From assembly GCF_000373105.1 (NCBI RefSeq), contig NZ_KB890497.1, positions 62,001 through 126,000 of the forward strand: a stretch of DNA of 64,000 bases, read 5' to 3'. Below the pieces are notes generated by a model. The model was not told the DNA's origin, searched no databases, and saw only the letters and a program-made list of their open reading frames with translations. Below are positions 2,398 through 63,016 of the stretch, in pieces. The first letter of the stretch is position 1. Every line of letters begins with the position of its first letter. This DNA is from Neolewinella persica DSM 23188. Its GTDB lineage: Bacteria; Bacteroidota; Bacteroidia; Chitinophagales; Saprospiraceae. The translations under genes were made by a program, and so were the position numbers.

Positions 2398-2414
2398 GGC
2401 GCAGACGCGGGTGC
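2398..2414 (-). repeat. Dispersed core repeat, copy 1
   Basis: GGCGCAGACGCGGGTGC, the reverse complement of the core GCACCYGCG-NNC-NCGCC. It faces copy 2 to form an inverted pair about 204 bp long. Confidence 0.75.
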
Positions 2415-2584
2415 AAAATTCCCCGGTTGCGCCGCTGGCGCAGCCCCGAAGGGCGGGGGTAGAGGAGCAGAGTGGTGGAGGAGGGGAGGAGAGCACTAAG
2501 GGACAAGGTTTTTCACTAAGTATGACCGAAAGGCTGTGGGCGAAAGGTCAGGCTCAAAACCTGGCTACTCCTCTCCCCAACTTT

Positions 2585-2601
2585 GCACCTGCGTCTGCGC
2601 C
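2585..2601 (+). repeat. Dispersed core repeat, copy 2
   Basis: GCACCTGCGTCTGCGCC, preceded by TCCCCAACTTT. The arm GCTCAAAACC lies further upstream (about 2550), matching the extended family arm though spaced wider than usual. Confidence 0.8.
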
Positions 2602-2913
2602 CTGAAATGCACATACCTGCACCTATAGCACATCTTTGGTCTATGCCCGATATTCCCGTTAGTATAGCTCTTATTGCCTGAGTGTCTTAGTGGTTATCTA
2701 TCCCGAGCAGCCCCAAACATACTGTAGGCTTACCGTCAAAATCTTGTTCTTCTTCACCGAGACCTCTTCAGTTGTCAGCAACCTCAGGGCCAACGGCAGT
2801 GAAACACTCGTAGACTTTCCAGCAACGTTCATCGATTTTAGACGGCAATGCTTGATTCCTGTAGAAATCTCCCGTACTATTGCACTGTATTACATAACTA
2901 ATACACTCAAGCA

Positions 2914-3753
2914 ATGATAATTCAAGCCAATAACCTGAAGCATTCCTACGGTAGCCTAAAGGTGCTGGACGGGGTGAATTTTTCGATACAAGAGGCTGGT
3001 ATAACCGGTCTGTGTGCTCCGAACGGGGAGGGTAAAACGACACTGCTTAAGCTGATTGCCGGCCTGCAATTTCCAGGTTCCGGAACCATTACTGCGCTGG
3101 ATCAAATCCCTCAGGACCGTCCGCTTGATTTGCTCCAACGGCTTTACTTCCTGCCGAGTGAACCTTACTTTCCCAAGTGGTCACCTCGCAGGATAGCGAA
3201 GTATTACGCGCCCTTTTACCCCAACTTCAACCATGAGCTTTTCGAGGAGACGCTCAAAGAGTTTCGGGTGGAGGCCAACAAGCCATTGAACAGGGTTTCC
3301 TTTGGCCAGAAGCGACGGGCGCAGCTCGCTTTTGCCCTCGCCACCCGAACCCAGGTATTACTGCTTGATGAACCCACCATTGGGCTCGATATTCAGGGCA
3401 AGGACCAATTTCGCCGCTCCCTGATTGCCGGCACCGAGGCTGGGCAGACGATCATCATTGCAACCCATCTGCTCAGTGAAATTGAACCGGTGCTCGACCA
3501 CGTCATATTGTTGAACGGTGGACGAATCGATGCACACCTTGCCATCGACGTCGCGCAGCGATTTTACAGCTTTAACCTAAGTACGAAACCATTGCCCTAC
3601 GGCGATAAAGGCTACGCCCGCAGGGTACCTGGCGGTTGGCTCACCGTACACGCCGACGGTCGCCCGGGAACCGCGACCTTCGACCTTGAAACCCTTTACC
3701 TGGCCCTTACCGACGGCGGCTTGCCCCGCCCGATTGATGCCGAAAAAAGATAA
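2914..3753 (+). CDS. ABC transporter ATP-binding protein
   Basis: 279 residues. Walker A is APNGEGKTT (35-43; the first Gly of the usual GPNGxGKTT is Ala), the signature is a divergent VSFGQKRR (128-135), Walker B is VLLLDEPT (148-155) and the H-loop His is in IATH (185). It is the energy-coupling subunit for the membrane protein that follows directly at 3758. Together with the GntR-type regulator at 4577 this resembles YtrA/YtrB-type modules, which in other phyla respond to cell-envelope antibiotics. The order here puts the regulator third rather than first. The substrate cannot be read from the sequence. ATG at 2914 is taken as start because the N-terminus begins right at the first beta-strand. 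Confidence 0.9.
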   Translation: MIIQANNLKHSYGSLKVLDGVNFSIQEAGITGLCAPNGEGKTTLLKLIAGLQFPGSGTITALDQIPQDRPLDLLQRLYFLPSEPYFPKWSPRRIAKYYAPFYPNFNHELFEETLKEFRVEANKPLNRVSFGQKRRAQLAFALATRTQVLLLDEPTIGLDIQGKDQFRRSLIAGTEAGQTIIIATHLLSEIEPVLDHVILLNGGRIDAHLAIDVAQRFYSFNLSTKPLPYGDKGYARRVPGGWLTVHADGRPGTATFDLETLYLALTDGGLPRPIDAEKR

Positions 3754-3757
3754 GACC

Positions 3758-4573
3758 ATGAATAGTTTTCAAAGAGTACTATTGGCTTCTCGTGCAGCCA
3801 TCAGAGAAATGCCGGGGGTATATTATTTGCTCTCGTCGGGCATTGTGCTTACTGTGTTATTCTTTATCGGTTTGATAGGAAAGGACGATGATGCAACGAG
3901 CGGGTTACTGTACAATCAATACACTGTTTTTGATGCCGACATAATGATGGGCATCATCATTATTGTTGGGTGGCTTTCCGCCACGATTATTTGCGGCGCT
4001 GCCTTTTTTAAGGACTTTAAGGAAGAGGATCGGGGAGTAAGGTACTTTTCACTTCCGGTGAGCAATAAGGAAAGGTTGGCCAGCTTGTTGTTGGTAAATT
4101 GGGGCTTCGTTTCCCTCATCTCTTTTGTGCCGCCCTTGCTATTAGCTGGTTTTAGTTGGTTAGTTGCCCCGGATTTTATCCTCTTTCCTTCACCACAGTA
4201 TTTGTTGCCAGTGTTGTTTGTTGGTCCGCTGGTTCATTTAATCTCTTCTTCCTACTGGATGTTCTCTTCGATCGCTTACCCGAAGCTTAGCGCCATATTC
4301 ATCCTTGGCTTTTTGGGTCTGGCAGCTTTGTACCTTTCTCAGACCCGAAATCTGTATTCAGACCGAATTGACATCGAACATACAACTACCGCATTTGATG
4401 CGACTAATGTGGTGGGAATGATGGATGATGGATTCCTTATTAAGGAGTCTGCGTCGTCACCGATCCCGTACTATTTGGAGGAGTGGAATACACTGGCAAT
4501 CTGCCTGATGGGAGTATGCTTGCTGTTTATGCTGATGTCAATGGGAATGGCCCTAAACCGAAAAACTACCTGA
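3758..4573 (+). CDS. ABC-2 type membrane permease
   Basis: 271 residues from the ATG at 3758, only a few bases after the ATPase stop; an in-frame ATG at 3686 would overlap the ATPase and give an unnatural N-terminus. About six hydrophobic segments are visible: near 20-41, 64-88, 113-145, 150-175, 180-205 and one at the C-terminus (CLMGVCLLFMLMSMGMAL). There is a charged loop after the second helix (FFKDFKEEDRGVRYFSLPVSNKERL), as common in ABC-2 subunits. It should pair with the preceding ATPase to form an exporter or membrane-remodelling complex. No close family is recognised beyond the general ABC-2 architecture. Confidence 0.8.
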   Translation: MNSFQRVLLASRAAIREMPGVYYLLSSGIVLTVLFFIGLIGKDDDATSGLLYNQYTVFDADIMMGIIIIVGWLSATIICGAAFFKDFKEEDRGVRYFSLPVSNKERLASLLLVNWGFVSLISFVPPLLLAGFSWLVAPDFILFPSPQYLLPVLFVGPLVHLISSSYWMFSSIAYPKLSAIFILGFLGLAALYLSQTRNLYSDRIDIEHTTTAFDATNVVGMMDDGFLIKESASSPIPYYLEEWNTLAICLMGVCLLFMLMSMGMALNRKTT

Positions 4574-4576
4574 TTT

Positions 4577-4951
4577 ATGGATATTCAAGAAACCAGTCAG
4601 GGAATTTACCGACAAATCGCAGAATTCGGCATTGAGCAGGTCTTGAGCGGTGTTTGGGCCGGGGGGGAGCGTATTCCTTCTGTACGCCAACTAGCTGCTG
4701 AAGTGGGGGTTAACCCCAATACTGTGATGCACGCCTACGACTATTTGAAATCGCTGGAGATCATTGAAACGCAGCGAGGTAAAGGCTTCTTCGTTACCGA
4801 AGCCGGTCGTAATGCTGCGGTCCAACTGCGCCGGCAAACTTTCCTGGAGGAGGAGTTGCCCCGACTCAGGAAGAACCTTGAGTTACTCGAAATCGATGCC
4901 AAGGAATTACACGAACTTCTTTTCCCACCCTCCATCACCAATCAATTATGA
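4577..4951 (+). CDS. GntR family regulator, YtrA subfamily
   Basis: 124 residues, starting 3 bp after the permease stop. The winged-helix domain occupies about 8-75, with the hallmark RIPSVRQLAAEVGVNPNTVMHAY and the wing RGKGFFV. The short helical tail (about 80-120) instead of a large effector domain is typical of YtrA-type regulators. These normally sit in front of the ABC genes they repress; here the gene lies third in the operon and its stop overlaps the next start (ATGA at 4948). Feedback control of the operon is inferred from context. No operator was identified. Confidence 0.9.
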   Translation: MDIQETSQGIYRQIAEFGIEQVLSGVWAGGERIPSVRQLAAEVGVNPNTVMHAYDYLKSLEIIETQRGKGFFVTEAGRNAAVQLRRQTFLEEELPRLRKNLELLEIDAKELHELLFPPSITNQL

Positions 4952-5652: not shown

Positions 5653-5678
5653 TTCTTTGGACCTGCTCAGGTTTAGGG

Positions 5679-5695
5679 GGCGGGGGCGCAGGTGC
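5679..5695 (-). repeat. Dispersed core repeat, copy 3
   Basis: GGCGGGGGCGCAGGTGC followed by an arm ACAGAGGGGGTTTTGAGCA, matching the extended family. It lies 27 bp after the stop of the anchored protein gene. Confidence 0.8.
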
Positions 5696-5757
5696 ACAGA
5701 GGGGGTTTTGAGCAAGGGCTACTGAACTTACAATATTTCGTGATCGCCTAACGAAAA

Positions 5758-7551: not shown

Positions 7552-7653
7552 GCAAAGGTGAATGAGCTAGGCTTCAAGGGCGAGCGGGTTATGCCCCGAT
7601 GGGGTCTGGTTTTAATCAGGGCTGACATCCCACTCGCCCCAAAACCTTCCCAT

Positions 7654-7670
7654 GCACCTGCGGCCGCGCC
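7654..7670 (+). repeat. Dispersed core repeat, copy 4
   Basis: GCACCTGCGGCCGCGCC, preceded by the arm CGCCCCAAAACCTTCCCAT; the whole arm closely mirrors that of the copy at 62579. Confidence 0.85.
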
Positions 7671-7676
7671 TCCTGA

Positions 7677-7746
7677 GAAACTAGGAACCAGGAACCAGTT
7701 CCCCAGCTCCTGCTCTCCTGCTTTTAGCTCCTGGTTCCTGGTTTCT
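7677..7746. repeat. Inverted repeat of AGGAACCAGGAACC type
   Basis: AACTAGGAACCAGGAACCAG on the left and CTGGTTCCTGGTTTC on the right can pair into a stem around a pyrimidine-rich loop. It lies immediately upstream of the helicase promoter. Confidence 0.6.
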
Positions 7747-7752
7747 AATCCC

Positions 7753-16122: not shown

Positions 16123-16186
16123 AAGGGGTTAAGGGAGGATTCAGGAACTTAACGTTGTCAGCACCTTGCTTCTTGTTCTCCTTATT

Positions 16187-16203
16187 GCACCTGCGGCCGC
16201 GCC
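16187..16203 (+). repeat. Dispersed core repeat, copy 5
   Basis: GCACCTGCGGCCGCGCC, preceded by CACCTTGCTTCTTGTTCTCCTTATT (arm with weaker match) and followed by TGAAAAA. It lies between the Uma2 and DUF4846 genes. Confidence 0.85.
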
Positions 16204-16211
16204 TGAAAAAG

Positions 16212-16847: not shown

Positions 16848-18005
16848 ATGCCTCCTCCCTACGTTCGTTCCGCCCACCTCGATGCCGCCGAAGTTTCCTG
16901 GTTTGCCCCCATCTGCAACGGCGATGATCGCTACCTGGGCGTCCGCGACCCTTTCTATAAAAGCAGCTACCGGAATGCTGCACAGATTGCGCGCACGGCG
17001 GACGAACTCGGCTACCGGAATATGCTGTTGCCGAGCAGCTACCAGGTAGGGCAGGATACCCTGACCTTTGCCGCCGCGCTGGCGCCACAACTCCGGCAAA
17101 TGAACCTGCTCACCGCCATCCGCTGCGGCGAGGTGCACCCACCGATGCTGGCCCGGGCGCTGGCTACACTTGACCATATGCTGTTGGGCAAACTGACCGT
17201 CAACATCATCAGCAGCGACTTGCCCGGGACCACCGTGGACAGCCCGACTCGGTACCGGAAAAGCCGGGAAGTGATTGAGATATTGAAGCAGTGCTGGACG
17301 CAGGATCACTTGTTGTTCAAGGGCGAATTCTATAACCTCGACTTGCCAACGGCACCGGTCAGGCCCTATCAGCAAAACGGTGGACCGTTGCTCTATTTCG
17401 GCGGATACAGCCCCGACGGCGTGGAACTATGTGCCGAGCATTGCGACGTGTACCTGATGTGGCCGGAAACGGAGGCGAAGATTCAGGCACTGATGGACAA
17501 TGTGGGCGCGGCCGCAGGTGCAAAGTTTGGCAGGAAGGTCGACTTCGGTCTCCGGGTGCACGTCATCGTCCGGGAAACCGAGGCGGAGGCCATCGCTGCC
17601 AGCCAATCGCTGATGCAAAACATTGACGCGGAAGCAGCAGAAGAACTGAAAAATCGGGCCCTGGACGCTAAGTCCTACGGCGTGAGCCGGCAGGCAGAGC
17701 TCCGCCAGAGCGCCGACAAAGACGGCTTCGCCGAAGAGCATCTGTGGACGGGCATCGGCCGGGCACGCTCTGGCTGCGGAGCAGCCATTGTTGGTAACCC
17801 CGACCAGGTGTACGAAAAACTGATGCGCTACCACGCAATGGGCATTCGGTCCTTCATCCTGTCGGGATACCCACACCTGGAGGAGTGTGAATTGTTTGCC
17901 CGGTACGTGTTGCCCAGGCTGAAGACTTGTTCTTTACCGGAGGTGCTCGGGCGGTGGCCGGTAGGGATTCCTGATACGCCTTTGGGTGGGGGCTTGCGGG
18001 TGTAG
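16848..18005 (+). CDS. LLM class flavin-dependent monooxygenase, SsuD (alkanesulfonate)-like
   Basis: 385 residues from ATG 16848, preferred to 16818 because the N-terminus then meets the family start. SsuD-like motifs: [14 protein letters not shown] early, [55 protein letters not shown] region, [23 protein letters not shown], and [12 protein letters not shown]. These proteins use reduced FMN to desulfonate alkanesulfonates or oxidise similar substrates. No ssuE or ABC genes are adjacent, so sulfur scavenging is inferred only from the family. Residues encoded at 17505-17521 (GAAAG) come from an in-frame copy of the dispersed core repeat in a loop before FGRKVDFG. Confidence 0.87.
17505..17521 (-). 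repeat. Dispersed core repeat, copy 6, in frame inside a gene
   Basis: GGCGCGGCCGCAGGTGC exactly matches the reverse core and is followed by AAAGTTTGGCAGG. It falls in the monooxygenase reading frame at a loop. Confidence 0.7.
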
Positions 18006-18009
18006 ATGG

Positions 18010-18260
18010 GGAATTAACCACTAAGGCACTAAGGGCATTGAGTACTACACTAAGAAGAGGCATACTAGGCAGGATGGGGAATAACCACTAAGGCACTAAG
18101 GACATTGAGTACTACACTAAGAATAGGCATGCTAGGCAGGAGGTGGAATAACCATTTAGGCACTAAGGACATTGAGTACTACACTTAAAATAGGCATACT
18201 GGGCGGGAGGTGGAATAACCACTAAGGCACTAAGGACATTGAGTTGTACACTAAGATTGT
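18010..18260 (+). repeat. 67-bp tandem array, about four units
   Basis: AACCACTAAGGCACTAAGG begins at 18016, 18083, 18150 (one variant ACCATTTAGG) and 18217, a strict 67-bp period. Each unit continues with CATTGAGTACTACACTAAG and a GGCATACTAGGCAGG tail. Confidence 0.92.
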
Positions 18261-21746: not shown

Positions 21747-21774
21747 AGACCTTGCTACTTAATCCCATTTCCTT

Positions 21775-21791
21775 GCACCCGCGGCCCCGCC
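21775..21791 (+). repeat. Dispersed core repeat, copy 7
   Basis: GCACCCGCGGCCCCGCC, with the arm CCTTGCTACTTAATCCC upstream that is nearly identical to copy 14 at 63000. Its last base is the end of the convergent lipoprotein gene's stop codon. Confidence 0.85.
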
Positions 21792-22978
21792 TAATCATCT
21801 AAATAGAAATCAAACGTAGCCAGGCGGCTCTTCAATTCTGTCTTTTTATAATTGGCGAAAACGGTAATTTCAACGAGGGCAGATATCCGTAGGTGATCCG
21901 GAGTAAACTGATCAATGTGCCAATAAGCCGTTGGTTCGCAGCCACCATTAAGTTCCAGCCACCGCTTATCTGCCGATATTTTATACAACCCATGCCGGAT
22001 GATCCGTTCACCGGCGAAGAGTGAAAAGCGGTAGTTCGGTTCAAAGTTCAGCCCCAACTGGCCCAGGTCTTCTGGCAAAAAATAGGCCCTGTTGGCCATC
22101 GCTTCATTTTCAACGATGATGGTGTAATCCTGCAAACTATCTTCCCGGCTCATAATCAGGTCAACGTAAACCTGAAGGCTATCGGCATCTGCCGGAGACC
22201 AGGGCTTCGTTAGCTGGTACCGCAGCTCTCCTTCATTAATCAGTTGGAAAAACCGATCGCTTTCAGCGGTTGAAAAAGCACGCTCCGGAACGATCAGTCG
22301 TTCTGATTTCCAGACGTCATCCGGCGTAGTGGTGGAAAACTGCCTTCCGTAAAGATGTTGGTTTTTTACGGAGTCAACCAAAGTGATCAACCCAAAACCT
22401 CCTTGCCAAAATTGCAAAATAGGTTGTCCAAACCGCCGGCACACTGCCCAGCCATCCTGGTTGTGCTGTAGCCTGATGTCATTCTTCGTAGCTCCTTCAC
22501 CAAAGCACCGCACTTTAAAGTAATTCTGGTTGATGAATTCTTCAATAACCGTGGCCCCTAAATAAACTTCCTGGTGTGGCCCTTCTGCTTGCTCCAGTAA
22601 AGTCCGGCCGATGAGCATCTCATCGACCAGGATGTTATCGGTTACCCGCATGGGGATTGCCCGAATGGGAGCTTTTGCACCGGGGCGTTGAAAAGACCAC
22701 AATTGATCCGTTTTTACGTAGAGGAAAGTGTCTTGACCAATGTATAAAGTGTCTTTTTTTACCCGAATGAAGGAAACGGTGGAGCGGGTATACCCTGGCT
22801 CGAAAATCTCCAGGGAATCCCCGACCGACCGAAGGACAGTTCCTTTGCTGAAAACTAGAGACGGTTCTCCGGAGATAATTATCCATTCTGCAGTTGTTCC
22901 CAAATTTGTGTGTTCGTGTTCGCAACCTAAAATGATGCACGATAACAGCAACAACAAAAATCTTGAGACGGGCGACAT
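21791..22978 (-). CDS. Lipoprotein of unknown function
   Basis: 395 residues. Signal peptide with lipobox ILGCEH (Cys19). The rest has no domain I recognise; the text is rich in aromatic and beta-prone segments (GLYKISADKRWLELNGGCEPTAYWHIDQFTPDHLRISALVE near the C-terminus looks like a lipocalin-like strand series). Length and lipidation suggest an outer-membrane-linked role. It is a single-gene unit facing away from trxA across a 305-bp gap; its stop touches a copy of the core repeat. Confidence 0.7.
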   Translation of the reverse strand: MSPVSRFLLLLLSCIILGCEHEHTNLGTTAEWIIISGEPSLVFSKGTVLRSVGDSLEIFEPGYTRSTVSFIRVKKDTLYIGQDTFLYVKTDQLWSFQRPGAKAPIRAIPMRVTDNILVDEMLIGRTLLEQAEGPHQEVYLGATVIEEFINQNYFKVRCFGEGATKNDIRLQHNQDGWAVCRRFGQPILQFWQGGFGLITLVDSVKNQHLYGRQFSTTTPDDVWKSERLIVPERAFSTAESDRFFQLINEGELRYQLTKPWSPADADSLQVYVDLIMSREDSLQDYTIIVENEAMANRAYFLPEDLGQLGLNFEPNYRFSLFAGERIIRHGLYKISADKRWLELNGGCEPTAYWHIDQFTPDHLRISALVEITVFANYKKTELKSRLATFDFYLDD

Positions 22979-23703: not shown

Positions 23704-24810
23704 TTGACGCGAAACGACATCAAGCCTTACAAAAGTATCTCTTTTTTATCCTGGTGGCCATTGCTTGTGCTGTCTATTTTGTTGGTAATCAGGTTGTTAT
23801 TGCCAGCGGCGACTATCGAGGCTGTTTATAGCAGGGGCATCTTTGTCGGAGTCCGGAATTTATGGGATTTTTTCCTTCCCCGCTTGCCAGTACCGCTTTT
23901 CTACCTGTTTTGGGCAGGGGTAATTTGGTGGATTTGGGCGACGGCGCGCAGGTGCAGGAAATGGTTTAAAGAAGCAGGGAGCTGGTCGGCCTGGGGTAAA
24001 CTCGGTCGGCGAATTCTTAATTCGGTCGCCCTTTTGATCTCAATTTTCTTGCTGGGGTGGGGCTTCAACTACGGTAGGGTAGAGGTGAGCGAGAAGATTG
24101 GCTTCGAACTCTATCAACCTACGCTCGATGAGCTCCGCGAGCGGGTTTACACTGAAGCCCGGGAGTTAGCCGCGCTTCGGAGACAGATCTCCAACGATAC
24201 CGTCGCGCTTACGGCAGCTGCGTTGCCCGCCAATCTTGAAAACGCCGTTCGGCCATTATTGATCGCTGCCCTGCAAAAGCATGGGTACCCCACGCCTGGT
24301 CATCCGCGCGCCCGGCAGCTGAAGCCAAAAGGTGTCTTACTTCGGCTGGGCACCGCTGGTGTCTATTGGCCCTGGGCGGGAGAAGGAAACATCGATGCAG
24401 GCTTGCACCCTCTGCAAAAACCCGCCGTCATGGCCCACGAACTGTCCCACGCCTATGGCTTTGGCGACGAAGGCACCTGCACGTTCTGGGCCTGGCTCGC
24501 CGGCCAGGAAACCAACGACCCGGTGCTGACTTACGCCTTCAAACTGGCGTACTGGCGGCGCATTGCCGGCCGGCTCCGGCAGCAGGAACCCGACGCCTAC
24601 TGGGCCTGGAGGGCCGAATCCCTCGCCCCCGGTATTCGCAACGACCTGCAGGCCATCTACGATAACTCCGAAATGTATAAGGACATCGCTCCCGTGATTC
24701 GTGACGTTACCTACGACACTTACCTGAAAGCACAGGGGATTCATGAAGGGCTGTTGAATTATGGCAAGGTGGTGCGAATGGTGGAAGGGTATTTGGTGGA
24801 TTCCCGGTAA
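23704..24810 (+). CDS. DUF3810 membrane metalloprotease-like protein
   Basis: About 368 residues if TTG 23704 is the start; the open frame extends upstream, but that part is antisense to trxA, and no ATG lies close. Three hydrophobic segments (about 12-35, 53-75, 97-118) are followed by a soluble domain with HELSHAYGF, an HExxH zinc motif, and EGTC downstream. The family is common in Bacteroidota but uncharacterised. ARRCRKWFKEAG at about residue 80 is encoded by a copy of the dispersed repeat (23943-23977). It is divergent from trxA. Confidence 0.8.
   Translation: MTRNDIKPYKSISFLSWWPLLVLSILLVIRLLLPAATIEAVYSRGIFVGVRNLWDFFLPRLPVPLFYLFWAGVIWWIWATARRCRKWFKEAGSWSAWGKLGRRILNSVALLISIFLLGWGFNYGRVEVSEKIGFELYQPTLDELRERVYTEARELAALRRQISNDTVALTAAALPANLENAVRPLLIAALQKHGYPTPGHPRARQLKPKGVLLRLGTAGVYWPWAGEGNIDAGLHPLQKPAVMAHELSHAYGFGDEGTCTFWAWLAGQETNDPVLTYAFKLAYWRRIAGRLRQQEPDAYWAWRAESLAPGIRNDLQAIYDNSEMYKDIAPVIRDVTYDTYLKAQGIHEGLLNYGKVVRMVEGYLVDSR
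23943..23977 (-). repeat. Dispersed repeat, shortened copy in frame inside DUF3810 gene
   Basis: GGCGCGCAGGTGC lacks 4 bases of the core but continues with AGGAAATGGTTTAAAGAAGC, matching the extended arm of copies 7 and 9 closely. Translated as part of the cytoplasmic loop after the second helix. Confidence 0.65.
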
Positions 24811-28682: not shown

Positions 28683-28714
28683 GTAACCTCCCCTGCTCCT
28701 TAATACTTCTCCTC

Positions 28715-28731
28715 GCACCTGCGACCGCGCC
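28715..28731 (+). repeat. Dispersed core repeat, copy 8
   Basis: GCACCTGCGACCGCGCC, preceded by CCTGCTCCTTAATACTTCTCCTC, matching the family arm. Confidence 0.85.
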
Positions 28732-28871
28732 AGAAAAGCATCTTATCAGTAGCCCGTAAAAGCCTTCGGCGTAAAATCTCCCATTAGCTATGCTGCTGCC
28801 TGCGGCGGTCCCTGATTCTCTCCTTCTCCATTTATTACCAACCAAGCCCTAAATTGTCCCCCAAAACCACC

Positions 28872-33544: not shown

Positions 33545-34099
33545 TCACTCTGTTAATTGACGTAATATAGATCGTTGATAACCAGATACTTTGTAGGAAT
33601 TGACCGCAGGGATGTCTTCTCCGTCGTGTTTTGTCTCACCGGTTGTACGGACAGGCGCCTCTTTTCCGCTGAAGATAGCATAGACCAGGTGATCTCCCCG
33701 GTGCTCAACGCTGGACATCAGATAGGTGCCACCGATGGTGAATACACTTTGGTAAGTACTGCCCAGGTAGTAGCCATCGAGCAGGATGGTGTTCTTTTCG
33801 TCGCAAATCCAGTGATGTGGCCCATCAGGGCCTTGCACGATGTAGTAGTCGCGTTTGCCGGCAACTTTATCTTCTCCATAGATGATGGTATAGGTGTAGC
33901 TGGTGTCGGTAATTGGTAAAATGTGGAGCTCCATCGGGACAGTTTGACGAACGCCAGAAGGGCCGAAAATCTGTAGTTCCCCAGCCCATTTTCCGGTAAA
34001 ATCCTGGGGGAAGGTGGGGAGTTTATCCGTTTGCGCATAGCAAAAGCAGGGAAGGATAAGTAACAGAAGGCTAAATAGGTGGCGCGGCCGCAGGTGCAT
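33545..34099 (-). CDS. Secreted protein of unknown function; start lies in a repeat
   Basis: 184 residues from ATG 34099. The longer frame to 34333 only translates the tandem repeat. The start and first residues MHLRPRH are encoded by an intact copy of the dispersed core repeat (34081-34097); RPRH then supplies the positive n-region of a normal signal peptide (LFSLLLLILPCFCYAQ). The mature part has WAGELQIFGPSGVRQTVPMELHI, typical of a beta-sandwich or lipocalin-like domain, and no enzyme motifs. Same-strand neighbour downstream at 33495. Confidence 0.7.
   Translation of the reverse strand: MHLRPRHLFSLLLLILPCFCYAQTDKLPTFPQDFTGKWAGELQIFGPSGVRQTVPMELHILPITDTSYTYTIIYGEDKVAGKRDYYIVQGPDGPHHWICDEKNTILLDGYYLGSTYQSVFTIGGTYLMSSVEHRGDHLVYAIFSGKEAPVRTTGETKHDGEDIPAVNSYKVSGYQRSILRQLTE
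34081..34097 (-). repeat. Dispersed core repeat, copy 9, at a start codon
   Basis: GGCGCGGCCGCAGGTGC, with TGGAGGTGGTCTTTTGAGGAGCA as arm. On the minus strand it supplies the ATG and HLRPR of a secreted protein. Confidence 0.85.
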
Positions 34100-34549
34100 G
34101 GAGGTGGTCTTTTGAGGAGCAAAGATAGGGAGGGTTGTTGCATTGGTTTCCCGGCTGTCTTGCTTGTTATAGAGTATTATTTCGTTAGTCAACGTAGGGA
34201 AAGTCAAAAAAGGGTGGGGTTTAGGAAAGATGGTTGTTCGAGGTTGAAATTGGGGATTCTGGTAGTAACTATTTAACCCAACCCGTACTTCTACGGAAGT
34301 ACATTTTTTAGGATAGTGAAGTGGCTCAATCAACCCGTACTTCTACGGAAGTACATCTTTTAGGATAGTGTAGTGGCTCAATCAACCCGTACTTCTACGG
34401 AAGTACATTTCTGTAGTGAAGGGTGATGGCCTGGACCTTTCTTTATGACGACGGCAGTAATCCACCCGTTTCTATTCTTCCAAACTAAAAGACTTTGCTT
34501 TGAAGCACGTAGCCTGCCTGGCCCACGCCCAAGGCGCACGCAACTGAAA
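34100..34549. other. 450-bp gap with 52-bp tandem repeats
   Basis: Contains the core repeat at its left edge, plus the tandem array. Remaining 130 bases before the LytTR gene show no gene. Confidence 0.6.
34277..34413. repeat. 52-bp tandem repeat with perfect hairpins
   Basis: Units start with ACCCG at 34281, 34333 and 34385. Each holds GTACTTC-TACG-GAAGTAC, a perfect 7-bp stem. Confidence 0.93.
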
Positions 34550-41019: not shown

Positions 41020-41241
41020 TTCCTCCTTAGTGTAGTCCTTAATGCCTGAATGACCTGAATGGTTATTCCTTCCCCTGCCGTTCGGTGCCTGCTCCTTAGT
41101 GTAGTCCTTAATTCCTTAGTGGCCTTAATGGTTATTCCTTCCCCTGCTTTTTGGCGCCTGCTCCTCAGTATATTCCTCAAAGCCTTAGTGACTTTAATGG
41201 TTACCCCTCCACTTGTCCCCCTGACCTCCTTCATAGTAGGA
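41020..41241 (-). repeat. 69-bp tandem array, about three units
   Basis: CCTTAGTGTAGTCC at 41025 and 41094 and a variant at 41163, a 69-bp period. Read on the minus strand it gives GAATAACCATTAAGGCCACTAAGG, the same family as the 67-bp array at 18010. Confidence 0.92.
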
Positions 41242-44430: not shown

Positions 44431-44524
44431 GGGCGCGAAGGTACCTTTGGATTCTCGATTCTCAATTCTCGATTCCGGATTTTTGATTGAAGGGTGCATT
44501 TTTATTGATTTTGAGTGAATAGTG

Positions 44525-44541
44525 GGCGGGGCCGCAGGTGC
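44525..44541 (-). repeat. Dispersed core repeat, copy 10
   Basis: GGCGGGGCCGCAGGTGC, arm AAGGGGAGGATTTTAAAGAGCAGGG. It lies between the secreted protein gene (ending at 44567) and murA. Confidence 0.88.
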
Positions 44542-44566
44542 AAGGGGAGGATTTTAAAGAGCAGGG

Positions 44567-45286
44567 TTAGCAGGCGACGCTGTAAAGAATGATGACTACT
44601 CCGAAGTATTCTTTGATAATGACTTCCTCCAGGTCCCTTTTAAAGGTTAGCGAGTCAGGTGTTTTATTGATCAGGTAAGCATTTTTCCACGCCATTCCGT
44701 TTGGGTTGTAATTATTAAGTTGGAACCATTTGGCGGCCAGGAGATAGCCCGCAGCCAAGGTGGCATTGGGCACCACGATTGTCTCTCCAGCACCGACCTT
44801 ATCCCAGAAACTGCTGATCGTGATTCCATTATCGTACAGCAGGCTGAGTTCTCCGTGCGTACTTTCTGCCGAAGACGGTAGAAAATGTAGCGTATCTACT
44901 ATCGCTACTCCGGGCTTTCCGCCACTAGCAAGGAAATTTACTGAAAGGGGCTTAGGATCGTAATTACTGATGTAGCCGTTAAAAGCATAGCCCTTCAGCT
45001 CACCGTACCGGACACCGACGAACTGCCCCAACATTTCCCAGCCAGGCAGTTCTTCTCCGTCCAGCTGGCGTACCGGGATGATGTCAATACTGAGGTCTTC
45101 TCCCCATTCGCCGGTCAGTTGGACGGTGGCGCCGTAGGGAATAACCGCCAGCTTTTTGCCTTGTGGATTGCCTTCGGCGCGCAGCACCAGGCCAGATGTT
45201 GCCCAAACGTATTTGTCGTTGGAGGTTGCCTGGTGTTGAGAAAGGAGGGTAGAGGAACAAAGTAAAAATAATGTGAGGTAACGCAT
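44567..45286 (-). CDS. Secreted protein with SH3-like region
   Basis: 239 residues. Signal peptide about 1-17. The segment YVWATSGLVLRAEGNPQGKKLAVIPYGATVQLTGEW is a typical bacterial SH3 (SH3b) start, with a following GYAFNGYIS. The remainder (about 110-239) is of unknown type and ends in a Cys (IILYSVAC). SH3b domains in secreted proteins usually bind peptidoglycan or other ligands, so envelope binding is inferred. No operon partner: it points away from the neighbouring DUF6304-like gene and is downstream of a repeat gap. Confidence 0.7.
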   Translation of the reverse strand: MRYLTLFLLCSSTLLSQHQATSNDKYVWATSGLVLRAEGNPQGKKLAVIPYGATVQLTGEWGEDLSIDIIPVRQLDGEELPGWEMLGQFVGVRYGELKGYAFNGYISNYDPKPLSVNFLASGGKPGVAIVDTLHFLPSSAESTHGELSLLYDNGITISSFWDKVGAGETIVVPNATLAAGYLLAAKWFQLNNYNPNGMAWKNAYLINKTPDSLTFKRDLEEVIIKEYFGVVIILYSVAC

Positions 45287-46417: not shown

Positions 46418-46477
46418 CCGACAGACAAACTTTTCGTCCGGCTGCGCCAGGCCGAAAAGGATTTGTCGGACGGCCGG
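46418..46477. repeat. Long hairpin, family CCGTCCGACAAA, second copy
   Basis: CCGACAGACAAAC and TTTGTCGGACGG outer arms, CTTTTCG/CGAAAAG inner arms around GTCCGGCTGCGCCAGGC. Shares the loop text with 20741-20770. Confidence 0.85.
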
Positions 46478-46502
46478 ACACTGTGCTCCTCTAACGAACT
46501 CT

Positions 46503-46519
46503 GCACCTGCGGCCGCGCC
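46503..46519 (+). repeat. Dispersed core repeat, copy 11
   Basis: GCACCTGCGGCCGCGCC, preceded by GTGCTCCTCTAACGAACTCT and followed by CTGAAAA. Confidence 0.85.
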
Positions 46520-46599
46520 CTGAAAATAAATTCCCCCCAAATTCCAACCTTTTACTTCCCCTTCCCATCAAATGAGCAAATGACCGCTTACCCGCCCGT

Positions 46600-55228: not shown

Positions 55229-55418
55229 AGGAATGTGGTAAGGGAATAAAGGTAGCAAAGGTAGAAGGGATTGGAGAGATTGTAGATTCCTAATTGTTGA
55301 TTTGGCAACAGGCGCTTCCATCACCCTTCTTAAACATGCTCTTTGTCCAAGTGGAAGGGGGCAAAATTAAGTATCAAGAATTAGCTATCATCAATCAATG
55401 CTCAGGGCTTTATTTTTG

Positions 55419-55435
55419 GGCGCGGCCGCAGGTGC
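55419..55435 (-). repeat. Dispersed core repeat, copy 12
   Basis: GGCGCGGCCGCAGGTGC, arm TAAGTCAGGTGAAAAGAGCACGG. Faces copy 13 at 55508 (106 bp outer length). Confidence 0.85.
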
Positions 55436-55507
55436 TAAGTCAGGTGAAAAGAGCACGGTGAGGACCTGCGCCGGTAAACCAACCTTGCTCCTTAAAACGT
55501 TCTCATG

Positions 55508-55524
55508 GCACCTGCGTTCGCGCA
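55508..55524 (+). repeat. Dispersed core repeat, copy 13
   Basis: GCACCTGCGTTCGCGCA (last base variant), arm CCTTGCTCCTTAAAACGTTCTCATG. Inverse of copy 12. Confidence 0.85.
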
Positions 55525-55557
55525 CAAAAACAATTACCTTACCAGAAAAAACTTCAG

Positions 55558-56739
55558 ATGAACGCTTTGCGCTTGATTTTACCCTTACTATTGATCGGTC
55601 AGCTTTTAAATGCCCAGGCCCCCGATAAATTTGCTGCCTATACAGATTTTCTCCAGGAAGAAATTGCTGAGGAACGCATTGCTGGAGCCGTGTCGCTGAT
55701 TGTAAAAGACGGCGAAGTTATCCACCAGGGCGCCTGGGGAATGAGTGACCGGGAAGCTGGCGTAGCGATGAAAAAAGACGACGTCTTTCACCTGATGTCG
55801 ATGACCAAGCCAATCATTTCCGTCGCCCTGATGCAACTGTGGGAAAAAGGAAACTTTAAACTTGACGATCCGGTAAGCAAGCACTTGCAGGGGTTCAGTA
55901 ACCTGCGCGTGGCAAAAGACGTGAATGAGGGGAAGGATGGACTTACGGACCCCGTCAAAAGCCCCGTCACCATTCGCCAGATCCTGTCGCATACCGCAGG
56001 TTTCAGCCACGGCCTTAGAGGTACGGCGCTCGACAAAGACGTAGCCCGGGCACTTTATTACCAACCACAAAAGGACATCAAATCTCGCGTGCGAACGCTC
56101 ACCCAACTGCCCATGATCGGCCAGCCGGGAGAGCAGTGGTCCTACAGCGCATCACCTGACATTGCCGCATTGTTGATCGAACATTTTACCGGAGAAACGG
56201 TGGATGATTACCTCCGAAAGCGCATTTTCAAACCACTGGGGATGAAGGATACTGGATACAATATGACGACCGAGCAGGCAGCACGGATGCCAAAGCTTTA
56301 TAAAGTAGTTGATGGTGAATTGGAGCGCGACGTTATGCAGATGCCCGCCAACGGCCATTCCGTTTTCGGTGGTAGCCATGGGCTATTGTCTACGACGGCC
56401 GACTACGGTAAATTCTGTGAAATGCTGGTGAACGGCGGTAAGGCCAACGGCAAACGGATCCTGAAGGCGAAGACCCTGGAACTAATGACCCAAAACCAAA
56501 TCGGCAACAACGTCTACGCCCCTGGCCAAACCTTCGGGCTTGGCTTCGGTGTTACCGCTGAATTACCGGAGGATGGGCTGGACAGCGTCGGCCGTTACTA
56601 CTGGAGCGGAGCCTACTCCACCTTCTTCTTTGTCGATCCGGCGAACGACCTGTATGCTATTTTGATGACGCAGACTTCGCCTTTTACTGGTAGGTACGGG
56701 GATGCTTTGCGGAAGTGGGTTTATAAGTCGATTAAATAG
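55558..56739 (+). CDS. Secreted serine hydrolase, beta-lactamase family
   Basis: 393 residues. Signal peptide about 1-20 (LNAQ). Class C/PBP-type fold: S81-M-T-K84 as SxxK, Y196-S-A as YxN-like, GGSHGLLSTTADYGKF and the third motif in YWSGAYSTFFFVDP, where a HxG/KTG is replaced by SGAY. The outline suits an esterase or D-peptidase rather than a true beta-lactamase. It is not in an operon, and the 31-bp array follows right after it. It is related in fold, not obviously in sequence, to the lipoprotein hydrolase at 5926. Confidence 0.9.
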   Translation: MNALRLILPLLLIGQLLNAQAPDKFAAYTDFLQEEIAEERIAGAVSLIVKDGEVIHQGAWGMSDREAGVAMKKDDVFHLMSMTKPIISVALMQLWEKGNFKLDDPVSKHLQGFSNLRVAKDVNEGKDGLTDPVKSPVTIRQILSHTAGFSHGLRGTALDKDVARALYYQPQKDIKSRVRTLTQLPMIGQPGEQWSYSASPDIAALLIEHFTGETVDDYLRKRIFKPLGMKDTGYNMTTEQAARMPKLYKVVDGELERDVMQMPANGHSVFGGSHGLLSTTADYGKFCEMLVNGGKANGKRILKAKTLELMTQNQIGNNVYAPGQTFGLGFGVTAELPEDGLDSVGRYYWSGAYSTFFFVDPANDLYAILMTQTSPFTGRYGDALRKWVYKSIK

Positions 56740-56747
56740 TTTGGTTG

Positions 56748-57090
56748 CGGGGGCGCTTCGCTCCTGTTGCGGGGTCGCTTCGCTCCGGTTGCAGTTGTTG
56801 CGGGGTCGCTTCGCTCCGGTTGCAGTTGTTGCAGGGTCGCTTTGCTCTGGTTGCAGGTGTTGCAGGGTCGCTTTGCTCTGGTTGCAGGTGTTGCAGGGTC
56901 GCTTCGCTCCGGTTGCAGTTGTTGCAGGGTCGCTTCGCTCCGGTTGCAGTTGTTGCAGGGGCGCTTCGCTCCGGTTGCAGTTGTTGCGGGGTCGCTTCGC
57001 TCTGGTTGCAGGTGTTGCGGGGTCGCTTCGCTCCTGTTGCAGGTGTTGCAGGGTCGCTTTGCTCCGGTTGCAGGTGTTGCGGGTCGCGCT
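56748..57090 (+). repeat. 31-bp tandem minisatellite, about 11 units
   Basis: Units of the form GGGTCGCTTCGCTCCGGTTG then CAGTTGTTGCG recur at exact 31-bp steps (56771, 56802, 56833, 56864 and on). Because 31 is not a multiple of 3 and no stop arises, several frames stay open across it, but this is not a gene. Confidence 0.95.
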
Positions 57091-57119
57091 TCATTCTAAT
57101 TCTATCGTTTGAGGGCACA

Positions 57120-57200
57120 TTGGGGTTTGTACCTGCAACCCCTGCAACTTCTGCAACGTGAGCGGAGCGAACCCCTGCAACGTGAGCGAAAGCGAACTTC
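57120..57200. repeat. Inverted copies of the 31-bp unit
   Basis: CTGCAACGTGAGCGGAGCGA and CTGCAACGTGAGCGAAAGCG are reverse-complement versions of the unit, so the array can fold back on itself. Confidence 0.8.
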
Positions 57201-58701: not shown

Positions 58702-61700
58702 CTACTGCTTCAGCCACCTCAAGCCCACGGAACCGCCCCCTGGCTCTCGCAGTTCCAGCCAGTAAGCGCCGGAGGCAACGTCGCCTAAACCGAAACTTTG
58801 CACCTGCGTCCCCGCCCGGAAATCAGCGTCGAATAACTGCCGGACTACCCGGCCCTGTGCGTCGATCAGGGTTGCCGTAAGGTGAGTGCTCCGACTGGCA
58901 GTGAAACTCAGGCGGAGCAGGCCGGTCGATGGATTGGGCGCAACCACGATGTCCCGAACACTGGTCAGGCTGCCATTCGGATCAGAAACGTTGTCGGTAT
59001 TTTCTGTAAATACGGGCCGCAGGGCCATTGGCCTGAACATGTTCATGTTCAGCTCTTCAGCGGAAGAGGTAATGTCCAACTCCCAGTATTGGAAAGTATA
59101 ATCTTCTTTCGCCACCGCTTTTACGCGGATGGGGATATTTTGGAAGTAATCGCCGGACCAGACATTCTCGTTGATCGTAAGACTGTTTACCTCCACGTAA
59201 CCCGCCAGGGTATCGGTAATCCTGACCGTAAGCTGATGGTGGGCCGGCAGGTTGTATTGCTGCTTGACGAAATTCTTCATGCTGGGCGCTCGATTTCTGA
59301 AAAACCGGCGGATGGATTCAACGGCACTCCGCCAATTATTGCCAGCTTCCCAACGCTGCTGGTGAAGGGGTATTTCACTTTCAATCGCGGCGGCCTGCCT
59401 GTTGATGTGTTCAATAACGGACGTTGGTAAGAAGCGGGAGTTCATCTCATCGGCTAACTGATTGATGAAACGATGGCGAAAGCCGGTGTTCTCCATCATC
59501 CGACGAAAGAGGAAGGTAGACCAGGGCGGATTTGGCCAGTTCGGTCCGTTGGCCTCCAGGGCAAACTGCAGGGTATTGGCGTTAGCCGCATTGCCGTTCC
59601 AGAGGCCGGCACCAAAATCGGTATCAAAGAGTATCCAGCGCCATTTTCCGCCGTCGGGCTGCCAGTATTTAATGTTGTTCCCCGGCCAATCGGTATTGTC
59701 ATAATAAATTTGAGCAACGAAGTACTGGATGAAATTGTCTAGATCGATCTGATCGGCGACCTGCCGGTAATTGGCCTCGTTGGTCAGCGTGTTGGCGGCC
59801 ATAAAATCAATCATCGCCCGGTAGCCCTCATTGCTGCCTTGAATCACGTCTGCATCAAACTCCAGCATGTTGATCTCGTCCGGATCATGACCGTGTAAGC
59901 TGGCCAGGTAGTGTTCGTTGACTTTCTCCCGCAGGTTGTAAAGCCCCCAGTATTCACCGTTCAGGTAGGTAGCCACACTGCGGTAGGCCTGGATGTCGAC
60001 GTTAGAGTTTTCCATCAGGCTGGTCAGCACCACATCGCGGAGCATGGAAGATCCGTTGTCGTTGCCGGCATTGCGGAGCACGAGTGCCTGGAATTCGGTG
60101 TAGCTACGTTGGGGGAAAAGGCCATAGTTGATCTCATCAACGCCGTAGCGACTACGGGCGAACAGAGACAGTGATCTTTGATCGTTGGCCCGACTCCAAC
60201 CGCCAAAGATTTTCACCCCTCCGTCGAATTGAAACCTGGCACTTCCGTCTGGCTCATGGAAGGTGAAGTTGATCGGATTTTCAATCTCTTCCCATATGTT
60301 GGAGCCGAAGAAGGGGAGATTACCTTCGTATCCTTCCCCGAGGACATACATGCCGGTAACCGGATGGAAGAAGTTGTCTGGTTCGGTCACCAGCGTCACT
60401 ACTGGTAAAGAGTGATTGGTACCGATCAGATAAGTCTCGGACTGGGTAGTGGAAGGCAGGTAATCGGGGCGGAAAATAGCCGCACGTACGACCGTGGTTG
60501 TATTGATGGCGAGGGGGGCAGTATACAGCGGGGAAGTGGCCGCTGGCTCCGTAGCGTCTAGCGTGTAACGGATCTGATAGGGGGTATCGGCGCCAGCCAG
60601 GCTAAGCGCAAAAGTTCCCGTAGGGCCGCCGCCTTGCGAGAAAATGACCGAACCGGGGGCCAGGCCGGCAAAGCCAGTGTCGGGGTTCCGTTCTCCGGGT
60701 GTGGTGGTGCGGAACAAACGGGGCACACCACCCATGCCGGGGATGCCGATGGAAACATTGGCGGGAACATCATGGACCCTGAGGCTGTCCACAAATACCC
60801 CGGCGGTGTCGTGCAGGAATAGGGTCTCTCCGTCGACAGACAGTTTAAAATTGGTGTGCAGGGTTGCTCTGGGAAGGGACAAGATTGTGGGAGGGGTCAC
60901 CCCATCACTATTGAGGCCGGCGTAGCGGGCCGTGAGGAAGGGAATCATGCTCATGTCTGACGAAAATGCGTTGACATTGTGGACCTGTATACTCAGTAGA
61001 TTCTCCCCGGCAACCAAAAGGGAAGCAGGATCGGCCACCACAAACCGAAGCGGGATACCCTCACCATAAATGCGTGCCTCGTAGTTGTTGTTGGCAAATG
61101 CATTCCAGGCCGGCCGGCTGTCGACCATGTTGAACCGGGCAATTTCTGTGCCGTTGAGGTAAGCCACGAAACCGTCGTCGAAGTCAACGTCGAAGAACAG
61201 TTCTTTCAGGTTTTCCAGGGTGTTGACGGTGAAGGTGCGGCGCAGAAAAACTGAGCTTGTACCGTTTGGTACGATCGTGGCGTCGTCGCCGTCGTCGTAG
61301 CCAAAGCCGCTTGGACCTTCGGCCCAGGCTGCGTCGTCAAAAAAGGGGCTTGTCCAGGAATCGTCAACGGAGCCAGTGGGAATGAGGTAGCGGAAATCAT
61401 CACCCCGGTTGACGAGGGTGCGGTAAGAAGCCACGTCGGACCGGTCCTTATCTGAGGCCCAGAAGAAGGCATATTGATCGGGGGCTAAGGTCAATCCATT
61501 GGGGATGGTCCACTTGCCGGGGTTGTCGGCTTTGTCTGACAAGGTGTAACCCGATAAGTCAACGGTTTGTGTGCCTGGATTATAGAGTTCAAACCAGTCG
61601 GGAGAGTCGTCATCTTCATCCAGGAAGATGCTGTTGGAAGAGACGGCTTCGTTGAGGCGAACCTGTGCGAATATTATATTCGGCAGGGTAAAAAGGCACA

Positions 61701-62415: not shown

Positions 62416-62578
62416 ATTGGAGTTGTTGGGGCGGCGCAAGGTAGAGAATAAGAGAATGGCTGCCGCAAGTACCGTTTGCGGCACTGTACTTGCTCACCTG
62501 GGCCGAAGTAGCACAGCGAAGTGCGTAGTCGTGGCGGTAGTTATTCACACATTCAATTATTCTCCCACTCACTTTTCA

Positions 62579-62595
62579 GGCGGGGCCGCAGGTGC
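62579..62595 (-). repeat. Dispersed core repeat, copy 15
   Basis: GGCGGGGCCGCAGGTGC, arm AGGGGAAGGGTTTTGGGGCGCAGAG. Confidence 0.88.
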
Positions 62596-62659
62596 AGGGG
62601 AAGGGTTTTGGGGCGCAGAGAGAAAGGTGCTGGTCCGAAGTGGTTTAGAGCGATTTGCT

Positions 62660-62710
62660 CATCGGATGCATCTTCCAGCCTGGCGTAGCCGGGTGGAAGT
62701 TCATCCGATG
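62660..62710. repeat. Hairpin CATCGGATGCATCTTCC
   Basis: CATCGGATG and CATCCGATG, CTTCCAGCC and GGTGGAAG pair. The CATCCGATAC stem at 62742 uses the same outer text. Confidence 0.75.
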
Positions 62711-62741
62711 TGTCGAATTGCGTGCCCGCCAGCATTTTATG

Positions 62742-62820
62742 CATCCGATACCACGTAGTAGACGCGAAGCGAAACTTTTGCGACTGCGTCAGCAAAAGAT
62801 GTATCGGATGTAGGGTGGTT
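62742..62820. repeat. Hairpin CATCCGATAC...GTATCGGATG
   Basis: Perfect 10-bp outer arms; inner GACGC ... GCGTC and CTTTTGC ... GCAAAAG. Confidence 0.8.
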
Positions 62821-62851
62821 AGAATTTCAAATCAGGAGGCTTTCGAGGAAG

Positions 62852-62965
62852 CGCTCGTCGGCCGAGGCGCGACGCAGGAGCTGACTCGTCCGCCGAGAGA
62901 TTCCGACCATCTACGCCCTCTCGGCCGACGAGTCAGGCCCTGTGGGCCGCCTCGGCGGACGAGCG
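62852..62965. repeat. Nested long inverted repeats CGCTCGTCGGCCGAGGCG
   Basis: Outer arms at 62852-62869 and 62948-62965 (18 bp, one mismatch), inner arms at 62882-62899 and 62918-62935 (18 bp, one mismatch), and the arms share their text. Confidence 0.9.
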
Positions 62966-62999
62966 GTCTTAACCCTTTTGCTACTTAATCCTTCCCCTT

Positions 63000-63016
63000 G
63001 CACCCGCGTCCCCGCC
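63000..63016 (+). repeat. Dispersed core repeat, copy 14
   Basis: GCACCCGCGTCCCCGCC, arm TTTTGCTACTTAATCCTTCCCCTT, followed by CGGAAAGCC. Confidence 0.88.

What the first reader, a model, noticed from the sequence alone, without database searches (positions are those of the whole stretch)
2398..63016. Dispersed 45-bp repeat family, about 17 copies in 64 kb
A 17-bp core GCACCYGCG-NNC-NCGCC with an arm (reverse strand GGTGC-A-GGGGAAGG-TTTTAAGGAGCAAGG, spacing 19-24 bp) appears at 2398, 2585, 5679, 7654, 16187, 17505, 21775, 23943, 28715, 34081, 44525, 46503, 55419, 55508, 58800, 62579 and 63000. The 3-base centre varies freely (GCC, TCT, TCC, ACC, TTC, CCC) while flanks and arm are kept; copies occur on both strands. 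A central hairpin is not kept across variants, so a protein binding site or a mobile unit copied by an unseen enzyme is more likely than a simple REP hairpin. I know no description of it.
Basis: seen in the sequence. Interest (0 to 1): 0.78.

Follow-up and report, generated by a model that had tools for sequence, protein, structure and literature searches.

The report
Evenly spaced strand-specific genome-wide DNA signposts
A marine bacterium and its relatives carry hundreds to thousands of copies of a short DNA signpost, spaced with unusual regularity on each strand separately and rewritten together as species diverge, which points to an unknown machine that reads the chromosome one strand at a time.

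Summary
The repeat is real and larger than reported. The window holds 21 copies; the 7.08 Mb genome (Lewinella/Neolewinella, Bacteroidota) has 1790 matches to the core (up to one mismatch) against 29 for a reversed control. It is bipartite: box A (CCYTGCTCCTT), then 18-24 bp later YTTGCACCYGCG-N4-6-CGCC.

All seven congeners examined in detail carry a dialect of it; 39 genomes of other genera are near background. Copies evolve in place: in sdaA, 9 of 9 species of one clade keep a copy at the same codons, in differing dialects. So it is not a mobile unit.

The unexpected feature is a spacing rule. Same-strand copies rarely lie within 2.5 kb of each other (26 pairs, 132 expected) and each strand is evenly spaced (CV 0.5). 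Outward-facing opposite-strand copies are not excluded. A held-out 385 kb repeats this; relatives do too, G014 less strictly.

Promoter, REP, Chi and transposon readings fit poorly. DNA uptake sequences are the closest analogue, but the secretin was not found and pilus-ATPase matches were only partial. Best reading: a strand-directional recognition signal, kept and retuned by biased transmission, served by an unknown machine. No binding factor is identified.

The parts
2391..2442 (-). copy; core 2398-2414, weak arm; left half of an outward-facing pair
   Evidence: score 17.2
2557..2608 (+). copy; core 2585-2601; right half of the pair with 2398
   Evidence: 34.7
5672..5723 (-). copy; core 5679-5695; points into the 3' end of a + ORF
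   Evidence: 38.1
7626..7677 (+). copy; core 7654-7670
   Evidence: 45.0
16159..16210 (+). copy; core 16187-16203
   Evidence: 42.7
17498..17549 (-). copy; core 17505-17521; antisense inside an ORF
   Evidence: 36.8
   Evidence: 26.8
21747..21798 (+). copy; core 21775-21791; between convergent ORFs
   Evidence: 40.3
23932..23983 (-). copy with 6-nt spacer; core 23937-23955; inside the DUF3810 ORF
   Evidence: 24.2
28687..28738 (+). copy; core 28715-28731
   Evidence: 44.8
34074..34125 (-). copy; core 34081-34097; overlaps a possible start codon
   Evidence: 30.6
   Evidence: 35.1
   Evidence: 34.2
   Evidence: 31.5
44518..44569 (-). copy; core 44525-44541; upstream of an EPSP-synthase-family (MurA-like) gene
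   Evidence: 49.8
46475..46526 (+). copy; core 46503-46519
   Evidence: 42.3
55412..55463 (-). copy; core 55419-55435; left half of an outward-facing pair upstream of an inorganic pyrophosphatase gene
   Evidence: 48.2
55480..55531 (+). copy; core 55508-55524; right half of that pair
   Evidence: 32.5
58772..58823 (+). copy; core 58800-58816; antisense near the 3' end of a long ORF
   Evidence: 39.2
62572..62623 (-). copy; core 62579-62595
   Evidence: 51.0
62972..63023 (+). copy; core 63000-63016
   Evidence: 40.4

Best explanation
The repeat is a genus-specific DNA recognition signal that acts on one strand at a time. Shown here: 1790 core matches in the genome; a two-box anatomy (CCYTGCTCCTT, 18-24 bp, YTTGCACCYGCG-N4-6-CGCC, then A/T-rich); species dialects; change in place at orthologous sites; strong exclusion between same-strand copies up to about 3 kb with even spacing on each strand; no exclusion between outward-facing copies. 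Inferred: one dedicated protein or complex of the genus binds it and works directionally from it over a few kilobases, so that a second same-direction copy nearby is redundant. Inferred and most likely: copies are kept and retuned genome-wide by biased transmission, as is proposed for DUS and USS. The machine would prefer DNA that carries the signal during uptake or recombination, so mutations towards the current dialect spread. Because the secretin was not found in the own genome and pilus-type ATPase matches in the genus were only partial, the machine would not be the type IV pilus system of Neisseria and Haemophilus.
For: Counts 1790 against 29, equal on both strands. Genus restriction. Dialects found from over-represented words, consistent with a murA tree. 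Dialect change at orthologous coding sites. Many in-gene copies encode low-constraint peptides such as APAAAPK and GAAAGAK, or signal peptides; a PMC3630211 passage likewise mentions permissive locations for DUS. Same-strand pairs below 2.5 kb: 26 against 132.2 expected in 1.25 Mb, and 1 against 30.4 in the held-out 385 kb (sums of the bins). Seven relatives: 9 same-strand neighbour gaps under 2.5 kb against 45.3 expected; G010 per-strand CV 0.28. ComEC in 21 of 21 genomes. Coordinated retuning of very many sites is easier under biased transmission than under site-by-site selection (inference).
Against: No binding factor and no uptake experiment. No secretin match in the own genome (own only); PF00437 matches in 20 of 21 genomes cover at most about 85 of 370 positions, 11 of the genomes just over the cut-off, so the known DUS machinery was not found. 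PMC1939737 (passages) says these sequences show no orientation bias and are not spaced evenly enough for compaction, while citing Karlin et al. for significant even spacing; PMC7811141 (passages) calls USS distribution uneven. So the strand rule is not a known DUS property. ComEC also rings in 10 of 14 control genomes. A contig with terminase and head-protease genes carries copies. Low-GC windows have only somewhat fewer copies (1.5 per 10 kb, on 2 windows). G014 obeys the spacing rule less strictly (8 gaps against 21.5) and G010's close pairs mostly face each other (5 to 1), the reverse of the own genome.
Confidence: 0.4

Rival explanations
1. Chromosome organisation: the copies are anchors for a nucleoid, loop or supercoil-domain protein that binds with polarity, giving a regular ruler of the chromosome.
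For: Copies per 10 kb have variance/mean 0.44 and 0 of 123 windows are empty; orientation-coded exclusion and outward-facing pairs; enrichment in intergenic regions.
Against: Dialects differ between lineages of one genus at very many sites, hard for a structural protein (inference); no candidate binder was looked for or found.
Confidence: 0.25
2. Recombination or repair signal of the Chi type: a helicase-nuclease reads the sequence from one side and becomes recombinogenic beyond it.
For: Strand-specific behaviour and a density of one per 3.4 kb fit the logic of Chi.
Against: The element is longer and more flexible than Chi (8 nt, recalled). In 350 kb of E. coli, Chi is polar (47 against 24), has per-strand CV 1.81 (inflated in part by the polarity) and shows no same-strand exclusion. 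Copies here are balanced on both strands.
Confidence: 0.12
3. Transcription element (promoter, leader, antisense promoter or insulator) reading forward from the core.
For: Densest in divergent intergenic regions; outward-facing pairs common below 300 bp (44 against about 8) and facing pairs reduced below 1.5 kb (17 against about 41); copies near gene starts are more often sense (26) than antisense (9) within 130 bp.
Against: In co-directional intergenic regions there is no preference for the gene strand (22 same, 33 opposite; 37 same, 40 opposite). Outward pairs occur in all gene arrangements. TAnnTTTG is not kept in the own genome. A conserved antisense copy lies inside sdaA.
Confidence: 0.12
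4. Spacing artefact: the motif has some function, but the same-strand gap reflects loss of nearby direct repeats by deletion, not directional function.
For: Direct repeats can delete intervening DNA and inverted ones cannot (established knowledge).
Against: The genome tolerates many same-strand tandem repeats; exclusion reaches about 3 kb with a 17-bp core; facing pairs are also reduced below 1.5 kb, which deletion does not explain.
Confidence: 0.08
5. REP/REPIN-like or MITE-like mobile element.
For: High copy number; intergenic enrichment; inverted pairs; RAYT genes present.
Against: Sites are orthologous and change by substitution and small indels; arms nearly independent between copies; close outward pairs range continuously over 50-270 bp, with no shared interior by eye; the RAYT flank read in full has its own palindrome.
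Confidence: 0.03

Closest known systems
DNA uptake sequence (DUS) of Neisseriaceae
   Same: About two thousand copies, both strands, dialects by lineage, copies inside and outside genes (PMC3630211, PMC1939737, passages)
   Different: DUS is 10-12 bp (12 recalled) without a box 20 bp away; it uses type IV pili, whose secretin was not found here and whose ATPase gave only partial matches; no strand-specific exclusion in the passages seen
Uptake signal sequence (USS) of Pasteurellaceae
   Same: Strong core plus weaker flanking segments; lineage variants; evolves by point mutation, not insertion (PMC7811141, passages)
   Different: USS spacing about 1 kb and described as uneven, uptake indifferent to orientation (PMC7811141, PMC1939737, passages); here 6-7 kb per strand and even
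Chi recombination hotspot
   Same: Directional, one per few kb
   Different: 8 nt (recalled), polar, no same-strand exclusion in 350 kb of E. coli
REP/REPIN with RAYT transposases
   Same: High-copy, partly extragenic, inverted pairs
   Different: Copies evolve in place; no RAYT link seen
HIP1 of cyanobacteria (recalled; named in a reference of PMC1939737)
   Same: Genome-wide over-representation in one lineage
   Different: HIP1 is an 8-bp palindrome; this is about 45 bp, asymmetric, with spacing rules

Membership tests
DUS/USS | Strong genome-wide over-representation of one short asymmetric sequence on both strands | tested here: met
   902/888 against 14/15
DUS/USS | Lineage dialects that change in place by point mutation | tested here: met
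   spacer indels occur too
DUS/USS | Type IV pilus uptake machinery (secretin, ATPase) | tested here: not met
   no PF00263 match in the own genome (own only; rings in 6 of 14 controls); PF00437 only partial, up to about 85 of 370 positions, 11 of 21 genomes just over cut-off, the best in frames of about 950 residues that look like other ATPases
DUS/USS | ComEC channel | tested here: met
   21 of 21 genomes; also in 10 of 14 controls, so not discriminating
DUS/USS | The sequence raises DNA uptake | not testable with these tools
   needs an uptake assay
Chi | About 5-8 nt (recalled) | tested here: not met
   17-bp core plus arm
Chi | Distribution like E. coli Chi | tested here: not met
REP/REPIN | RAYT gene flanked by the same repeat | tested here: inconclusive
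   C5:28630 is flanked by another palindrome; of six further RAYT loci (L188-L193) three hold one or two motif-like matches within 1.5 kb and three none, about what the density gives
REP/REPIN | Mobility (insertion differences, recent identical copies) | tested here: not met
   no close strains were available
Bacteroidota promoter (TAnnTTTG recalled) | TAnnTTTG and a gene on the same strand | tested here: not met
   (own genome)
Known RNA family | Rfam match | tested here: not met
   0 matches in the window at gathering scores

The most novel reading that the evidence does not exclude
The chromosome carries two strand-specific rulers: a sequence-specific machine, present through a whole genus, acts on each DNA strand separately from sites about 6-7 kb apart with an exclusion zone of about 3 kb, and the whole set of sites is repeatedly rewritten in concert as the machine's specificity shifts.
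Probability: 0.35. Interest if true: 0.95.

Novelty: categorically new. Interest (0 to 1): 0.85.

Why it matters
PMC7811141 (passage) names two families, Pasteurellaceae and Neisseriaceae, as those with strong sequence preference in uptake. A comparable signal set in Bacteroidota, with dialects, would be an independent origin and a test of molecular drive. Even if it is not an uptake signal, a same-strand exclusion law does not match the arrangement of Chi measured here or the published accounts of DUS/USS seen in passages. It makes strand-directional reading of a chromosome testable in cultured marine strains; motif copies are visible in the one stretch held of Neolewinella aurantiaca SSH13.

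Tried and rejected
Promoter/5' leader: no gene-strand bias in co-directional gaps and no TAnnTTTG in the own genome. Signal peptide as the primary function: some copies encode signal peptides, but most are intergenic, mid-gene or antisense. RAYT/REP. MITE. Chi. Conjugative-element test of foreign DNA (PF12508): uninformative, nothing rang in any control. G021, another genus: no comparable dispersed word stood out in 117 kb. Own against G014: blocks found were 68-82% identical and rarely covered intergenic DNA, so gain and loss of single sites could not be dated. Papers: 15 of 135 listed; 5; 2; 10 of 44; none; 20 of 130 listed, titles on unrelated subjects; passages read from PMC1939737, PMC3630211 and PMC7811141, no paper in full.

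Full report
OBSERVATION. The core pattern GCACCYGCGNNCNCGCC has 21 matches in the window with up to two mismatches; shuffles give 1.17 on average and never more than 4. The whole genome (7.08 Mb, 84 contigs) has 902 forward and 888 reverse matches with up to one mismatch; the pattern read backwards has 14 and 15. In 1.25 Mb read directly there are 370 profile matches and 4 in reversed sequence.

WHO HAS IT. A pyrophosphatase from the window finds relatives at 79-83% identity in Neolewinella aurantiaca, Lewinella MAGs and one unnamed Bacteroidia MAG, and at 73% and 56% in two further MAGs. Of 20 congeners searched, 18 have clear excess over the control, from 104 matches (G006, control 26) to 1550 (G014, control 21); G001 (17, control 14) and G010 (11, control 7) are near control. 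Of 39 genomes of other genera (G021-G059) none exceeds 21 matches; the highest are G021 21 (control 17), G027 17 (6), G034 15 (13) and G049 11 (2). A faint excess in G027 and G049 was not followed up.

DIALECTS. G001, G006 and G010, the three congeners with fewest matches, carry their own versions. Over-represented words gave CCTGCGCTCCGCCGC in G001, CCTGCGCTCCGGCGC in G006 and TTGCTACTTTG, often followed by NNAGNCAAAA, in G010. G013 uses GCACCTGCGGCAGCGCC; G002 keeps TGCACCTGCG and CGCC(C) with 4-6 nt between. Dialects are consistent with a murA protein tree of 19 genomes, in which some nodes are weak: G001 pairs with G006, and G010 has a long branch. The GCG/CGC dyad around the variable loop is replaced by TTTG/CAAA in a good part of the G010 copies. 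That is one double change and only suggests a hairpin or a paired binding site.

ANATOMY. Conservation runs from about -25 to +22 around the core (166 exact copies). A second box, C-C-Y-TGCTCCTT, lies 18-24 bp before the core, peaking at 20-22; TGCT is present at -34 to -14 in 167 of 270 copies. Arm columns are close to independent: maximum pair identity 21 of 24 against 18.7 in column shuffles, standard deviation 2.65 against 2.32. The excess comes at least partly from the sliding of box A; a little shared ancestry cannot be excluded.

EVOLVES IN PLACE. In the L-serine dehydratase gene, 9 of 9 species of one clade carry a copy, antisense, at the same codons. Eight fit the strict expression and G008 differs by one letter. 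The copies read, for example, GCACCCGCGTCCCCGCC in G004, GCACCTGCGATCCCGCC in G011 and CTACCTGCGCTCGCCGCA in G001, so the site follows the dialect of its genome. The other 12 genomes, the own one included, have a distant version of the gene (53-58% identity to the query) and no copy at that place. Four of them (G000, G002, G009, G018) have a copy elsewhere in the gene; those of G002 and G009 lie at the same offset with the same letters. Within 250 bp upstream of murA, 12 of 19 genomes have a copy: the own one and G001-G006, G012, G013, G017, G019 and G020; G014, G018, G015, G008, G016, G011 and G010 do not. A raw tally of 109 of 185 aligned site-by-genome comparisons retaining a motif counts pairs in both directions and some sites twice, so it is only rough.

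SPACING RULE. In the first 868 kb (270 copies) same-strand pairs are at 0.08 of expectation below 300 bp, 0.14 at 300-1000, 0.32 at 1-2 kb, 0.38 at 2-3 kb and about 1 beyond. Opposite-strand pairs are not clearly depleted at 1-3 kb. Outward-facing pairs (arms inside, cores away from each other) are 4.6 times over-represented below 300 bp. Facing pairs were depleted at 300-1000 bp in that set (1 against 14.5). A further 385 kb, fetched later and not used to build the profile, has 100 copies (reversed control 1): 1 same-strand pair below 2.5 kb where 30.4 are expected, and 15 outward pairs below 300 bp against about 2. The facing depletion at 300-1000 bp did not repeat there (4 against 4.6), although below 1.5 kb as a whole facing pairs are low in both (all 17 against about 41; held-out 4 against about 10). 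In all 1.25 Mb, 26 same-strand pairs lie below 2.5 kb against 132.2 expected. Each strand alone is evenly spaced: mean 6.3 and 6.9 kb, CV 0.53 and 0.50, 5 gaps under 1 kb against 49.5 expected; no 10-kb window of 123 is empty and variance/mean is 0.44. A null that places 60% of sites in intergenic regions gives CV 1.06 against 0.63 observed for merged units. In seven relatives, searched with species-specific expressions, 9 same-strand neighbour gaps under 2.5 kb are seen against 45.3 expected; 8 of the 9 are in G014, where 21.5 were expected. G010, with the most distant dialect, is the most regular: 14 gaps, CV 0.28, none below 3.1 kb. Against the pattern, G010's close pairs are mostly facing (5 to 1); how its motif is oriented relative to the others is uncertain.

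GENE CONTEXT (own simple gene caller, approximate). 106 of 167 exact copies are intergenic (63%) against about 21% of random points; with the profile set 158 of 270 lie outside called genes. Divergent regions are richest (1.31 per kb, against 0.60 convergent, 0.55 and 1.06 for the two co-directional kinds). In co-directional gaps 22 copies follow and 33 oppose the genes, 37 and 40. Outward pairs under 1 kb lie in all gene arrangements: -- 15, -+ 14, ++ 11, +- 3. In-gene copies encode low-constraint peptides, APAAAPK in sense, GAAAGAK and ARTQVQ antisense, and signal peptides near gene starts.

WHAT IT IS NOT. No Rfam family matches in the window. No link to RAYT genes was seen; they occur in 20 of 21 genomes, and the flank read in full has a GATCCC...GGGATC palindrome. 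It is not Chi-like in arrangement: in 350 kb of E. coli, Chi is polar (47/24) and shows no same-strand exclusion (5, 6, 18 and 8 pairs below 3 kb by bin, against 3.0, 6.9, 9.8 and 9.7).

MECHANISM. A signal that is strand-specific, evenly spaced on each strand and retuned genome-wide within a genus suggests a directional reader. Coordinated retuning is most easily explained by biased transmission, as proposed for DUS/USS. PMC1939737 (passages) reports no orientation bias for those sets and judges them not even enough for a compaction role, while citing Karlin et al. for significant even spacing; PMC7811141 (passages) calls USS distribution uneven; PMC3630211 (passages) describes DUS dialects. 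The pilus machinery those systems use was not found: no secretin in the own genome, and only partial ATPase matches in the genus, 11 of 21 genomes just over the cut-off. ComEC is present in 21 of 21 but is widespread. I therefore say that it evolves like an uptake signal, and do not file it as one.

NOVELTY. Searches for a highly iterated Bacteroidetes motif, for uptake sequences with Bacteroidetes or Bacteroidota, and for the core word showed no description (listings only, and only 20 of 130 for the core word). This covers open-licence PMC papers alone.

Noticed in passing
window 56703-57136: Tandem array of a 31-bp unit at and beyond the end of a beta-lactamase-family ORF; the genome is rich in such repeats.
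   Followed up: no
window 18008-18256, 34279-34434, 41011-41217: Tandem arrays with 67-, 52- and 69-bp units.
   Followed up: no
own genome C5:28630-28968 (L072): RAYT-type gene flanked by a GATCCC...GGGATC palindrome, probably its own REP family, distinct from this motif.
   Followed up: partly
viral contig IMGVR_UViG_3300009467_000002 (L108, L135, L141): A contig with terminase and head-protease genes carries at least five good copies of the motif: an adapted prophage, or host DNA in the contig.
   Followed up: partly
own genome, many places: Other repeated words, TTGCAGGGGTTGCAG and TGCAACCTGCA, mostly in same-strand runs under 300 bp.
   Followed up: no
window 603-2270: Protein with MORN repeats and a caspase-like domain, preceded by an outward pair of the motif.
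   Followed up: no
G015:C6:146175-147494: murA homologue read with one in-frame TGA.
   Followed up: no
G010: Its dialect contains TACTTTG, which resembles the Bacteroidota -7 promoter element (recalled); whether this is chance is open.
   Followed up: partly
G027 and G049 (other genera): Slight excess of core matches over the reversed control (17 against 6, 11 against 2).
   Followed up: no
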